DNA from: Streptoalloteichus hindustanus
Lineage (GTDB): Bacteria; Actinomycetota; Actinomycetes; Mycobacteriales; Pseudonocardiaceae
Assembly (NCBI RefSeq): GCF_900129375.1
Contig: NZ_FQVN01000003.1
Span: 558,001-622,000 of the forward strand
DNA: 64,000 nt
Direction: 5' to 3'
This document shows, in pieces, positions 1,075-39,175 of the stretch (positions are counted from its first letter, which is position 1; the number at the start of each line of letters is the position of its first letter). A program made the translations under genes and the position numbers. Below the pieces are notes generated by a model. It was not told the DNA's origin, searched no databases, and was given only the letters and a program-made list of their open reading frames with translations.

Positions 1075-1216
1075 CACTTTCGTATACGAAGTGCCCTCTA
1101 GGAGCAGTACGCGACCCTGCATTTCGTATACGAAGTGCCATCCAGGACAGCGGCACCGCGCACTTCGTATACGAAGTACCAGACAAAGATGTTGGCGTAC
1201 TTCGTATACGAAATAC
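1075..1216. repeat. Array of four TTCGTATACGAA palindromes
   Basis: The 12-bp perfect palindrome TTCGTATACGAA occurs at 1079-1090, 1123-1134, 1164-1175 and 1201-1212. Flanks extend it in most copies to GCACTTCGTATACGAAGTGC. Centre-to-centre spacings are 44, 41 and 37 bp, roughly four helical turns. The spacers after copies 1 and 2 also resemble each other (GTGCCCTCTAGGA, GTGCCATCCAGGA), so the array looks like a decayed tandem repeat of about 41 bp. It lies between two convergent genes, and a terminator-like hairpin sits on each side. The half-sites resemble a GntR-type TNGT..ACNA operator, but no promoter is nearby. I did not see the 12-mer elsewhere in the window. Confidence 0.85.
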
Positions 1217-1348: not shown

Positions 1349-3984
<2,636 letters not shown>

Positions 3985-4160
3985 TCGCGGACCGGCCGCG
4001 CCTTCCCCGGCGCGACCGGCCCGCCCGGCGGGGTTCCCGTGCCGACCACACCGGCCGGGAACCCGGGTCTGGGGTGGGGGCGACGAGCCGGCCGGCCCCG
4101 GCGTACCGCGCGCCGTGGGCCGGCCGACCGTCAGCCGGACCGAAGCAGAATGATCAAGGT

Positions 4161-4278
4161 CGACGAGGGCGCAGCCCGCTCTGCCGCTGAGCTACGGGCC
4201 CCGGCGCCGTCACCGCCAGCGGCCGGGCCCGGCGGGAGTCGAACCCGCGACCCGCTGCCCGAGATTCCGCCCTCGTCG
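4161..4278 (-). tRNA. Candidate circularly permuted tRNA (3' half precedes 5' half)
   Basis: Read on the minus strand, a tRNA 3' half comes first: variable loop GGGTC, T-stem GCGGG/CCCGC with loop TTCGACT, acceptor strand CGGGCCC (4231-4225). After a 23-nt linker (4224-4202) comes a 5' half: acceptor GGGCCCG (4201-4195), TA, D-stem GCTC/GAGC with loop AGCGGCA. The two acceptor strands pair over 7 of 7 bases. GCTGC (4175-4171) can pair with GCAGC (4258-4254) as an anticodon stem, then GCCCTCGTCG (4170-4161) pairs perfectly with CGACGAGGGC (4278-4269). T8-A14, G15-C48, G18G19 and the T-loop consensus are all present. If GCTGC/GCAGC is the anticodon stem, the 3' half supplies loop ATCTCGG with U33 and anticodon CUC. 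Oddities: one extra G between D and anticodon stems, no encoded CCA. It could also act unspliced as a two-piece RNA, or be a decayed tandem tRNA pair. Confidence 0.6.
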
Positions 4279-4328
4279 GCGTACCGCCCCGATCCGGCCG
4301 CCCCTGACGCGGCCGTCCGGCTCGTCGA

Positions 4329-4347
4329 CCGGGTGGAACCCACCCGG
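4329..4347. repeat. Small hairpin upstream of the permuted tRNA
   Basis: CCGGGTGG (4329-4336) and CCACCCGG (4340-4347) form an 8-bp stem with a 3-base loop. On the minus strand it lies about 50 bases before the 3'-half element. It could be part of the precursor RNA or an unrelated terminator; I cannot tell which. Confidence 0.35.
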
Positions 4348-4574
4348 GGAGCCGGTCCCGGTCGGTCAGGGACGCATGGGCAAGTCCGGAGACCGCCGGC
4401 CGAGCCGACACGCTCTCGCAGTAGCCCCGCTCTTCACCCCGGTGATGTTGCCAGCGGAGCTTCCTTGCGCGCCAACGGTTTTTCACCGCGACGAACGGGA
4501 GGCGCGCCGCGGGGACCACCGCGGGGCTGGGCCGATATGAGCAGGCCCACAGCGCCCGATCAGCCCATGATCGC

Positions 4575-19474: not shown

Positions 19475-19602
19475 GTGCGCCACCTACCATCCGGACTTTC
19501 ACCGTCGGCCCCGGAGTTCCACCGGGTCAGCCGCCAACTGGACGTTGACGGGTCGCGGGCTGTCACCGCCGGTTCGGACTTCCACCGAGCCCCGGAGCGC
19601 AC
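19475..19602 (-). promoter_or_regulatory. FMN riboswitch (RFN element)
   Basis: The minus-strand RNA contains the hallmark RFN segments in order: CTCGGTGGAAGTCCGAACC, GGCGGTGACAGCCCGCGA, GACCCGGTGGAACTCCGG, GGCCGACGGTGAAAGTCC and GGATGG. The closing P1 stem is GTGCGC (19602-19597) with GCGCAC (19480-19475). It precedes the PnuC-type gene by about 80 bases, so FMN should repress the transporter. Confidence 0.95.
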
Positions 19603-30292: not shown

Positions 30293-31530
30293 GCACTGCG
30301 AACGACGTCGTCGTCACCGGGTTGGGCGCCACCACGCCGCTCGGTGGCGACGTCACCACGACCTGGCAGGCGCTGCTCGACGGCCGCAGCGGCGTGGGGC
30401 GGCTCGAAGCCGACTGGCTCGACCGGTTCGACCTCCCGGTGCGGATCGCGGCGCAGCTCGCCGTGGAGCCCACCGAGGTGCTCGCCCGGGTCGAGGCCCG
30501 GCGGATGGACCGCTGCGAACAGGTCGCGATGGTCGCCGCGCGGCAGGCCTGGGCCGACGCCGGCCTGGCCGGCGAGGAGCCGCAGGTCGAGCCGGAGCGG
30601 CTGGCCGTGGTCGTCGGCACCGGCATCGGCGGCGCGATGACCATGCTCCAGCAGGACGACCTGCTGGAGACCGCCGGCCTGCGCAAGGTCTCGCCGCTGA
30701 CCGTGCCGATGCTGATGCCCAACGGCCCCGCCGCGTGGGTGGGCCTGGACCTGGGTTCGCGGGGCGGCGTGCACGCCCCCGTCTCGGCGTGCGCCTCCGG
30801 CGCCGAGGCCCTGGCCTGGGCGTGGCGGATGCTGCGGGCGGGCGAGGTGGACGTCGTCGTCGCCGGTGGCGCCGAGGCCTGCATCACGGCGTTGCCGCTG
30901 GCCGGCTTCGCCCAGGCCCGCACGATGAGCACGCGCAACGACGAGCCGGAGCGCGCGTCGCGGCCGTTCGACGCGGCGCGGGACGGCTTCGTGCTCGGTG
31001 AGGGCGCCGGGCTGATGGTGCTGGAACGGGCCGAGTTCGCCAGGGCGCGCGGCGCGCGCGTCCACGGCCGGCTGGCCGGTGTCGGCACCAGCGCCGACGC
31101 CTACCACATCACCGGGCCCGAGCCGGAGGGCAAGGGGGCGGCGCGCGCGATCGCGGCGGCCCTGCGCACCGGCGGCATCGACCCGAAGGACGTGGGGCAC
31201 GTCAACGCCCACGCCACCTCCACCCCGGTCGGCGACGTCGCCGAGGCCGCGGCGATCCGCTCGGCCGTCGGCGATCACCCGGTCGTGACCGCGCCCAAGT
31301 CGGCCCTCGGCCACCTGCTGGGCGCGGCCGGCGCGGTGGAGGCCATCGCCACGCTGCTCGCGGTGCGCGACGGCGTGGTGCCGCCCACGCTGAACCTGGA
31401 GAACCTCGACCCGGCGGTTCGACTGGACGTCGTGGCCGGCGAGGCACGTCGCGTCGAGCTGACCGCCGCCGTGAACGACTCGTTCGGCTTCGGTGGGCAC
31501 AACGTGGCGCTCGCCTTCACCTCGGCGTGA
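30289..31530 (+). CDS. fabF: 3-oxoacyl-ACP synthase II (KAS II)
   Basis: Elongating condensing enzyme of fatty-acid synthesis, 413 residues. The Cys-His-His triad is intact: Cys168 in VSACASGAEA, His308 in NAHATSTPVGD, His342 in KSALGHLLGAAG. GTGIGGAM and the C-terminal NDSFGFGGHNVALAF gating/CoA loop are also present. The GTG at 30289 overlaps the acpP stop (GTGA). A strong terminator follows, separating fabF from accD. Confidence 0.96.
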   Translation: MSTANDVVVTGLGATTPLGGDVTTTWQALLDGRSGVGRLEADWLDRFDLPVRIAAQLAVEPTEVLARVEARRMDRCEQVAMVAARQAWADAGLAGEEPQVEPERLAVVVGTGIGGAMTMLQQDDLLETAGLRKVSPLTVPMLMPNGPAAWVGLDLGSRGGVHAPVSACASGAEALAWAWRMLRAGEVDVVVAGGAEACITALPLAGFAQARTMSTRNDEPERASRPFDAARDGFVLGEGAGLMVLERAEFARARGARVHGRLAGVGTSADAYHITGPEPEGKGAARAIAAALRTGGIDPKDVGHVNAHATSTPVGDVAEAAAIRSAVGDHPVVTAPKSALGHLLGAAGAVEAIATLLAVRDGVVPPTLNLENLDPAVRLDVVAGEARRVELTAAVNDSFGFGGHNVALAFTSA

Positions 31531-38453: not shown

Positions 38454-39175
38454 CGCCCGCCCCGGGACCGCTCGATGAGCGCGACGAACTCGTCGAGGGG
38501 CTGGGCGCCGAGCAGCGGGAAGCCGTTGATCACGAAGGTCGGGGTGCTGCTCGCGCCGATGTCCTGGGCCTCGGCCGCGTCGGCGCGCACGCCGGCCAGC
38601 AGGGCCCGGTCGGCGAGGTCGGCCTCGAACCGGGCGAGGTCGGGCACGCCGGAGCGGCGCGCGAGGTCGAGCAGCCGCTCCTTCGGGAAGTCGCCGTGCC
38701 CGCTGCGGGGCGCCTCGGCGAAGGCCAGGTTGTGGTAGTCCCAGAACCGGCCCTGCCGGCCGGCCGCCCTCGCGGCGACGGCGGCGGCCTCAGACTCCTC
38801 GCCGAAGATCGGCATGTCCCGCCACTCGATGCGCAGCACGCCGCTGTCGACGTAGCGGCGGACCAGCTCCGGCTTGGTGTCGGTGCTGAACTTGGCGCAG
38901 AAGGGGCAGCGGTAGTCGGCGTACTCGACGAGGACCACCGGCGCGTCGACCCGGCCCACGGCGTACGGGTCGTCGGCCTTGCGGCGGGCGAGCCCCCTGG
39001 CCGGCCCCTCGGTGGCGGAGGCCGACGCGCGCGGCGTCGCGGTGGCCGCGCCCCCGCCGTCGGCGTTCCGGTCGCCGCGGCCCGCGCCCAGGTAGGCCAG
39101 CGTCACCGCGACCACCACCACGACGGCCGGCACCAGCCAGCGCAGGGTCTCCTTCCGCCCGCCCCGTGCAGCCAT
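38450..39175 (-). CDS. DsbA-like thioredoxin-fold protein, membrane anchored
   Basis: A 241-residue protein with one N-terminal transmembrane anchor (WLVPAVVVVVAVTLAYLGAG) and an extracytoplasmic DsbA/thioredoxin-like domain. The active site is YADYRCPFCAKFS (CPFC) near residue 96, and the cis-Pro loop is STPTFVINGFPLLG near 215. Such proteins oxidise or isomerise disulfides of exported proteins. It overlaps ccdA, which would keep it reduced; hence reductase/isomerase duty is plausible. Start ATG at 39175. Confidence 0.9.
   Translation of the reverse strand: MAARGGRKETLRWLVPAVVVVVAVTLAYLGAGRGDRNADGGGAATATPRASASATEGPARGLARRKADDPYAVGRVDAPVVLVEYADYRCPFCAKFSTDTKPELVRRYVDSGVLRIEWRDMPIFGEESEAAAVAARAAGRQGRFWDYHNLAFAEAPRSGHGDFPKERLLDLARRSGVPDLARFEADLADRALLAGVRADAAEAQDIGASSTPTFVINGFPLLGAQPLDEFVALIERSRGGR

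What the first reader, a model, noticed from the sequence alone, without database searches (positions are those of the whole stretch)
4161..4278. Circularly permuted tRNA-like gene on the minus strand
The sequence shows a full set of tRNA elements in the wrong order: T-arm and acceptor 3' strand first, then a 23-nt linker, then acceptor 5' strand and D-arm. The acceptor strands pair 7 of 7. The outer ends, which would be the anticodon side, pair perfectly over 10 bp (GCCCTCGTCG/CGACGAGGGC) next to a 5-bp GCTGC/GCAGC stem. Two random or decayed tRNA halves would give acceptor pairing but not the extra 10-bp helix, so this looks like a designed precursor. Permuted tRNA genes are established in some algae and archaea; two-piece permuted tmRNA is known in bacteria. 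A permuted ordinary-looking bacterial tRNA would be unusual. It might be ligated (for example by an RtcB-like ligase), act unligated as a two-piece RNA, or be a non-decoding tRNA mimic. The inferred CUC anticodon depends on one folding choice.
Basis: partly seen in the sequence, partly recalled or inferred. Interest (0 to 1): 0.92.

Follow-up and report, generated by a model that had tools for sequence, protein, structure and literature searches.

The report
Orphan bacterial Y RNA mimicking tRNA
The sequence is a real circularly permuted tRNA-shaped RNA gene; it is best read not as a scrambled tRNA but as a bacterial Y RNA, a known tRNA mimic that normally partners the Ro protein, kept here in a genome with no detectable Ro gene.

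Summary
In detail: window 4278-4161 (-) carries T-arm, 7/7 capped acceptor and D-arm in permuted order, closed by a 5-bp stem and a perfect 10-bp helix, with further pairing to about 4299/4133. The reading as an unusual tRNA precursor is not supported: two ordinary tRNA-Glu(CUC) genes exist. The same permuted layout on a long stem lies upstream of a Ro (TROVE) match in 53 of 53 family genomes that have both: YrlA, the tRNA-mimicking bacterial Y RNA. A covariance model made from 29 such RNAs, without the window, matches it end to end (46.1 bits; caution: one tandem tRNA pair reaches 46.6), and both outer strands resemble the YrlA stem in register (0 of 20,000 shuffles, a test made after the likeness was noticed). 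Unusual: neither genome of this genus (Streptoalloteichus) has a detectable Ro gene, yet the RNA is kept in synteny, 92% identical against 73-83% in the flanking non-coding DNA, with one compensatory acceptor change. I read it as an orphan YrlA retained without Ro. Expression, function and partner are untested; a decaying relic is not excluded. By-product: DUF7873 genes of actinobacteria and phages are followed by permuted tRNA-like RNAs.

The parts
4133..4299 (-). whole RNA gene as inferred (167 nt), orphan YrlA-type Y RNA
   Evidence: fold/duplex, R1 match 4287-4144, element coordinates. Ends are inferred; no transcript data.
4284..4299 (-). outer helix, 5' strand (pairs with 4148-4133; 16 pairs with 5 G-U in the window, 11 kept in S. 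tenebrarius)
   Evidence: An alternative 8-bp pairing GATCGGGG 4294-4287 / CCTTGATC is also possible.
4279..4283 (-). internal loop, 5' side (TACGC; about TGCGCA in the YrlA consensus)
4269..4278 (-). inner 10-bp helix, 5' strand (the finding's extra helix); resembles the YrlA stem, e.g. GACGAGGGT in L048
4259..4268 (-).
4254..4258 (-). 5-bp stem at the anticodon-stem position, 3' strand GCAGC
4232..4248 (-). T-arm, GCGGG-TTCGACT-CCCGC
4225..4231 (-). acceptor 3' strand CGGGCCC
   Evidence: compensatory G-C to A-T in S. tenebrarius
4202..4224 (-). 23-nt cap joining the acceptor strands; no CCA after the acceptor 3' strand
4195..4201 (-). acceptor 5' strand GGGCCCG
4178..4192 (-). D-arm GCTC-AGCGGCA-GAGC with the GG of the tRNA elbow
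4171..4175 (-). 5-bp stem at the anticodon-stem position, 5' strand GCTGC
4161..4170 (-). inner 10-bp helix, 3' strand GCCCTCGTCG
4149..4160 (-). internal loop, 3' side ACCTTGATCATT (about GACTTTGATCT in the YrlA consensus)
4133..4148 (-). outer helix, 3' strand
2743..3984 (+). neighbour: DUF2891 gene, convergent with the RNA
   Evidence: Pfam PF11199
4668..6011 (+). neighbour: fprA-type ferredoxin/NADP reductase gene, divergent from the RNA
   Evidence: Pfam Pyr_redox_2; the name fprA is recalled

Best explanation
The locus is a stand-alone gene for a YrlA-type bacterial Y RNA of about 167 nt. Shown from sequence: the RNA can fold unspliced into a tRNA-like body (T-arm, acceptor stem closed by a 23-nt cap, D-arm with the elbow bases) whose anticodon side runs into a long stem with an internal loop, as in the YrlA RNAs of related genomes; neither genome of the genus has a detectable Ro gene. 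Inferred: it descends from a Ro-linked YrlA, Ro was lost, and the RNA was kept because its tRNA-like half works on its own or with another partner, for example by occupying proteins that read the tRNA elbow (modification enzymes, RNase P) or by tethering a nuclease such as PNPase. Also inferred: as long as the cap is not cut out, it has no free acceptor end and cannot be charged.
For: Permuted order and capped acceptor. Model R1, built from 29 family YrlAs (28 beside a TROVE match, one, L060 of G229, beside Ro remnants) without the window or its congener, matches 4287-4144 (-) over positions 1-131 at 46.1 bits and S. tenebrarius at 45.1. Stem strands: scores reached by 50 and 447 of 20,000 shuffles separately, summed and near the expected register by 0 of 20,000. 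Of 249 family genomes 56 have TROVE and 56 an R1 match of 45 bits or more, one tandem tRNA pair left out; 53 have both, and in 53 of 53 the RNA lies 157-2230 nt (median 839) upstream of the TROVE match on the same strand; 28 of these 53 supplied R1's rows. The three RNA-only genomes are the window's, its congener and G229, where only short Ro remnants are left. Ro: no PF05731 match in the window genome or its congener, none at E<=10 with a profile of 12 family Ro proteins. Identity 129 of 140 in 4160-4299 against 132 of 160 and 117 of 160 in the non-coding flanks. Changes between the species: one compensatory pair in the acceptor, one G-C to G-U in the 5-bp stem, none in T-arm, D-stem or 10-bp helix (D-arm placed by hand).
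Against: R1's score does not separate it from tandem tRNAs: a tRNA-Val/tRNA-Ile pair in G155 scores 46.6 and the window's own tRNA pair 40.2. The 45-bit cut was set after seeing the scores. Rfam's YrlA gives 28.7, far below 69, though 0 of 249 family genomes reach 69. It lacks the TTAC motif common in the family copies. S. tenebrarius scores lower on the stem test (10.03 against 15.1; no shuffles run for it) and its outer helix keeps 11 of 16 pairs. Only two species are held; covariation is thin (233 of 500 shuffles as good). The RNA is about as conserved as the coding DNA around it (88-90% in blastn segments), not more. No promoter or terminator pattern. The empty Ro profile search had no positive control in it, so a very diverged Ro is not excluded.
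Confidence: 0.66

Rival explanations
1. It is a relic: a YrlA that lost its Ro gene and is decaying without function.
For: No Ro detected; TTAC motif gone; outer helix partly broken in S. tenebrarius; no promoter pattern; G229 shows that Ro loss leaving YrlA behind does occur.
Against: Core 92% identical against 73-83% in the non-coding flanks; the three substitutions at paired core positions keep pairing; elbow bases kept in both species. Two species only.
Confidence: 0.2
2. It is a permuted tRNA-like RNA of separate origin with a partner other than Ro, comparable to the RNAs beside DUF7873.
For: DUF7873 genes are followed by permuted tRNA-like RNAs in nearly all loci read, so such RNAs need not go with Ro. 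The window RNA has a 5-bp stem at the anticodon-stem position, as some of those seem to have by eye, and which the family YrlA consensus lacks.
Against: No DUF7873 in either genome; stem strands resemble family YrlA in register; the flanking genes are a reductase and a DUF2891 gene on the other strand.
Confidence: 0.09
3. It is a permuted precursor that is processed and ligated into a working tRNA-Glu(CUC), as in some algae and archaea.
For: Full set of arms, variable region of 5 nt, U before CUC if 7 nt of the bulge are taken as the loop; RtcB present.
Against: Two regular tRNA-Glu(CUC) genes in each genome; the loop would need cuts at a continuous helix; resemblance of the outer stem to YrlA; a 2014 review lists permuted tRNAs in archaea and algae and none in bacteria (PMC4033280, passages). 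The missing CCA is weak evidence, since actinobacterial tRNA genes often do not encode it (recalled).
Confidence: 0.03
4. It is the chance remains of two tandem tRNAs or of tRNA halves.
For: Tandem tRNAs score like it with R1 and RF02553.
Against: Closing helices rare in shuffles, same arrangement in a second species, no tRNA called here.
Confidence: 0.02

Closest known systems
YrlA bacterial Y RNA (Rfam RF02553; a bacterial Y RNA structure, PDB 6CU1, is named in PMC11472068)
   Same: Circularly permuted tRNA-like module with T-arm, capped acceptor and D-arm, joined at the anticodon side to a long stem with an internal loop; stem strands resemble those of family YrlAs.
   Different: No Ro gene detected in the genome; 23-nt cap instead of 3-8 nt in the Ro-linked copies listed by the scan; extra 5-bp stem at the anticodon position; TTAC motif missing; far below Rfam's gathering score.
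Permuted tRNA genes of algae and archaea
   Same: 3' half before 5' half with a linker between the acceptor ends.
   Different: Outer ends form a long helix; regular tRNA genes for the same codon exist; no sign of splicing in the sequence.
Permuted two-piece tmRNA
   Same: Acceptor strands in reversed order within one gene (recalled).
   Different: No Rfam tmRNA match here, no tmRNA called by ARAGORN.
Permuted tRNA-like RNAs downstream of DUF7873 (found here)
   Same: T-arm, capped acceptor, D-arm order; some with a 5-bp stem and an outer helix by eye.
   Different: Found beside DUF7873, mostly in tandem pairs; different stem sequence by eye.

Membership tests
YrlA / bacterial Y RNA | Circularly permuted tRNA-like module with elbow bases | tested here: met
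YrlA / bacterial Y RNA | Ends paired into a stem with the conserved Ro-binding sequence | tested here: inconclusive
   Stem present; strands resemble the family consensus near the register, 0 of 20,000 shuffles, but TTAC is missing and Ro binding is untested
YrlA / bacterial Y RNA | Matches the curated Rfam model at its gathering score | tested here: not met
   28.7 against 69 bits; 0 of 249 family genomes reach it either, so the score is a poor test in this family
YrlA / bacterial Y RNA | Ro/Rsr (TROVE) gene in the genome, usually beside the RNA | tested here: not met
   an association seen in relatives, not proven to define the RNA. For this reason I call it YrlA-type, an orphan, not a standard member.
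YrlA / bacterial Y RNA | Bound to Ro protein in the cell | not testable with these tools
   needs experiment
Permuted tRNA gene (decoding) | Yields a mature tRNA with a 7-nt anticodon loop and CCA | not testable with these tools
   no transcript data; bulge of 10 nt
Permuted tRNA gene (decoding) | Sole or needed source of its anticodon | tested here: not met
   two regular tRNA-Glu(CUC) genes in each genome
Tandem tRNA remnant | Two complete tRNAs at the orthologous locus | tested here: not met
   the one congener held has the same permuted RNA

The most novel reading that the evidence does not exclude
Y RNAs can outlive Ro: in Streptoalloteichus a YrlA-type permuted tRNA mimic works without Ro, alone or with a replacement protein. 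Together with the RNAs beside DUF7873 this would make permuted tRNA mimics a general class of bacterial and phage RNA that pairs with more than one protein family, Ro being only the best known.
Probability: 0.35. Interest if true: 0.75.

Novelty: new variant of a known kind. Interest (0 to 1): 0.5.

Why it matters
What the tRNA-like half of YrlA does is, to my knowledge, an open question, usually asked with Ro present. A genome that keeps the tRNA mimic but has no Ro separates the two halves of the problem: whatever the RNA does there, it does without Ro. It is also a caution that permuted tRNA-like sequences in bacteria should be compared with Y RNAs before being called permuted tRNAs.

Tried and rejected
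DNA-level search of 120 family genomes: 99 matched at E<=0.01. Beyond the congener (5.1e-48) the best was 5.6e-8; a structural scan of the loci fetched from that call found a permuted RNA only in the window, and, in Ro-linked YrlAs, in L018 and L019 (its strict D-arm rule missed the congener), so I took the rest as tRNA-like or chance without checking each. RF02553 across 249 genomes: 243 matched at E<=0.1 on a capped list. Many matches are 51 nt over positions 30-81, which I take for tRNA pairs but did not fetch; of 20 other loci read, ARAGORN calls tRNAs in 14. So no YrlA counts were taken from that search. Regions upstream of fprA: of 30 loci scanned the RNA was seen only in the window and its congener; a first pass had not turned minus-strand loci and was discarded. 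At first I judged the window RNA to lack the Ro-type stem (note); the strand comparison reversed this. The alternative 8-bp outer pairing would gain a compensatory change, but it conflicts with the YrlA-like arrangement, so it is left open. Pair statistics on two sequences carry no weight; MAFFT displaced the D-arm there, so changes were listed by element from the pairwise alignment. Phage search with the RNA: no match. Ro remnants in 60 kb up to and around the RNA: best tblastn E 0.006, taken as chance. DUF7873 fold: confident model (mean pLDDT 87.7) but no PDB match at E<=0.001 and none by sequence at E<=0.1.

Literature: Chen 2014, Sim and Wolin 2018, Sim 2020 and Burroughs and Aravind 2016 are not held; they and Wang 2018 were seen only in reference lists, and what I say of their content is recalled. 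Passages only were read of PMC9569102, PMC11472068, PMC7790460, PMC4033280, PMC7824862, PMC7765460, PMC8190616 and PMC6340977. I make no claim that a Ro-less Y RNA is absent from print: one paper says that several phages are reported to have YrlA, and others list predicted YrlA in mycobacteria and in a prophage.

Full report
What is there. Reading the minus strand from 4299: outer helix strand, a short internal loop, the 10-bp helix strand, a 10-nt bulge, a 5-bp strand at the anticodon-stem position, T-arm, acceptor 3' strand, 23-nt cap, acceptor 5' strand, D-arm, and the partners back out to 4133. RNAfold gives the 10-bp helix, T-arm, capped acceptor and D-arm unprompted. Total fold energy is ordinary for such GC-rich DNA (19 of 200 shuffles as low), but the contiguous helix between the two flanks is not (5 of 2000 shuffles for 11 Watson-Crick pairs).

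What it resembles. Standard tRNA and Rfam searches at curated cut-offs miss it. With relaxed limits the only match here that stands out is YrlA, a bacterial Y RNA. PMC11472068 describes a bacterial Y RNA structure, 6CU1, as superposing on tRNAs with a circular permutation (passages), and PMC7790460 says that YrlA has a tRNA-like domain (passage). I therefore asked what Y RNAs of this bacterial family look like.

The family. In 249 genomes of the family, 56 have a TROVE (Ro) match. Permuted tRNA-like RNAs with a conserved stem lie upstream of these, and they covary: 14 of 27 consensus pairs have at least one sequence changed on both sides. A covariance model, R1, was built from 29 of them: 28 beside a TROVE match and one from G229, where Ro has decayed; none from the window or its congener. 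It matches the window from end to end at 46.1 bits and S. tenebrarius at 45.1. Across the family, searched with filters that may lose weak matches, 53 genomes have both TROVE and an R1 match of 45 bits or more, three TROVE only (G026, G065, G093) and three the RNA only (the window's, its congener, G229). In all 53 the RNA is upstream of the TROVE match on the same strand, 157-2230 nt away, median 839; 28 of these are R1's own rows.

How strong is the link to YrlA. The score alone is not decisive: one tandem tRNA pair (G155) reaches 46.6 bits and was left out of the count by hand because ARAGORN calls two tRNAs there, and the window's own tRNA pair scores 40.2. The stem strands carry the argument. 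The 5' strand CGGTACGCCGACGAGGGC and the 3' strand GCCCTCGTCGACCTTGATCATT are the best fits in their flanks to the family consensus; alone their scores are reached by 50 and 447 of 20,000 shuffles and by 4 and 21 of 3434 other stretches of the window; summed, and within about 7 nt of the expected register, by 0 of 20,000. This test was made after I had noticed the likeness by eye. S. tenebrarius scores 10.03 against 15.1; I ran no shuffles for it. The TTAC motif common in the family copies is absent.

No Ro detected. PF05731 finds nothing in the window genome, 99.86% complete, or in its congener. A profile of 12 Ro proteins of the family finds nothing in either at E<=10; that search had no positive control within it. 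In G016 the Ro-YrlA pair lies between genes with matches in the window genome. There the nearest matching stretches are about 1.1 kb apart, but one of them is only 65 residues long and the other 50% identical; the better flanks (79% and 66% identical) are 5.0 kb apart there and 6.6 kb in G016. No R1 match above 12.4 bits and no convincing Ro remnant lies in between. The orphan RNA is about 34 kb from that place. Whether Ro was lost here or gained in G016 is not decided by this.

Is it kept by selection. Only two genomes of the genus are held; the congener is S. tenebrarius DSM 40477. The locus is syntenic. Identity is 129 of 140 in 4160-4299, against 132 of 160 in 4000-4159 and 117 of 160 in 4300-4459, and 88-90% in the blastn segments that hold the nearest genes. 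In the core, the acceptor has one compensatory G-C to A-T change and the 5-bp stem one G-C to G-U; the 10-bp helix, the T-arm and the D-stem do not vary. Unpaired core positions hold three substitutions and two deletions. The outermost helix is less well kept: 11 of 16 pairs in S. tenebrarius. This suggests selection on structure; it is no proof.

Not a tRNA. Two regular tRNA-Glu(CUC) genes lie elsewhere in each genome. RtcB is present in both, but also in 9 of 14 control genomes. The 'CUC' sits in a 10-nt bulge beside a continuous helix.

How it most likely works. Shown: a sequence that can fold into a capped tRNA-like body on a Y-RNA-like stem, with no Ro detected. Inferred from what is described for Y RNAs: in Deinococcus radiodurans a Y RNA tethers Rsr to PNPase (PMC7790460 and PMC6340977, passages). 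Without Ro, the simplest remaining role is that of the tRNA-like half: binding proteins that read the tRNA elbow, as a tether or decoy. I give 0.66 to an orphan YrlA that still works and 0.2 to a relic.

By-product. While sorting non-Ro hits I found that DUF7873 genes (PF25283) are followed on the same strand by permuted tRNA-like RNAs. The scan asks for a T-arm followed at once by a capped 7-bp hairpin; the D-arm was judged by eye. In the family 24 of 25 loci have at least one within 400 nt and 22 of 25 two (6 of 7 hairpin pairs allowed). In a class-wide sample 36 of 394 genomes have the protein; of the 30 loci fetched, 30 have at least one such RNA and 22 two at 7 of 7 pairs, with 0 hits on the opposite strand in 111,714 nt. 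The same is seen in three of four phage records read (the fourth has a 6-of-7 candidate) and in 7 of 9 viral contigs, one of the 7 with a 6-of-7 candidate only (one of the two without has little downstream sequence). 73 phage records, duplicates included, encode the protein. No paper of the held library contains the name DUF7873. Neither Streptoalloteichus genome has it, so it does not explain the window RNA, but it suggests that permuted tRNA mimics need not go with Ro.

Noticed in passing
L149-L173, L182-L211, L212-L214, L235-L238, L241-L243: DUF7873 (PF25283) genes in actinobacteria and phages are followed downstream by one or, mostly, two tandem permuted tRNA-like RNAs (24 of 25, 30 of 30, 3 of 4 and 7 of 9 loci read): a protein/RNA pair without Ro, for which I found no paper under that name. 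AlphaFold model mean pLDDT 87.7, no PDB match at E<=0.001.
   Followed up: partly
L112 (G229:C2:1171000-1180000): A relative with two YrlA-type RNA matches (123.9 and 64.1 bits) where 12 family Ro proteins find only stretches of 20-28 residues beside them, and no TROVE match in the genome: Ro loss with the RNAs left.
   Followed up: partly
window 4460-4484: CTTCCTTGCGCGCCAACGGTTTTTC upstream of the reductase gene is identical in the window, S. tenebrarius and another genus (G010), where the RNA is missing at this place: a conserved regulatory site or small reading frame.
   Followed up: no
window 1078-1213: Four copies of the palindrome CTTCGTATACGAAG (0-1 mismatch) whose starts are 37-44 nt apart, expected 0.02 by chance: looks like an operator array.
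   Followed up: no
window 30892-30985 and 38997-39085: ARAGORN tRNA-Leu and tRNA-Ala calls that Rfam's tRNA model does not support at its cut-off; probably false.
   Followed up: no
window 19475-19602 (-): FMN riboswitch, 96.7 bits.
   Followed up: no
e.g. L044:1758-1872 (-), L053:1180-1296 (+): Second, shorter Y-type RNA with the same outer motif upstream of YrlA in several genomes of genus g7.
   Followed up: no
L216-L218 (G016:C1:2932000-2983000): Ro-YrlA of G016 lies about 21 kb from its fprA-type gene, in a neighbourhood partly shared with the one in which the window holds the orphan RNA.
   Followed up: partly
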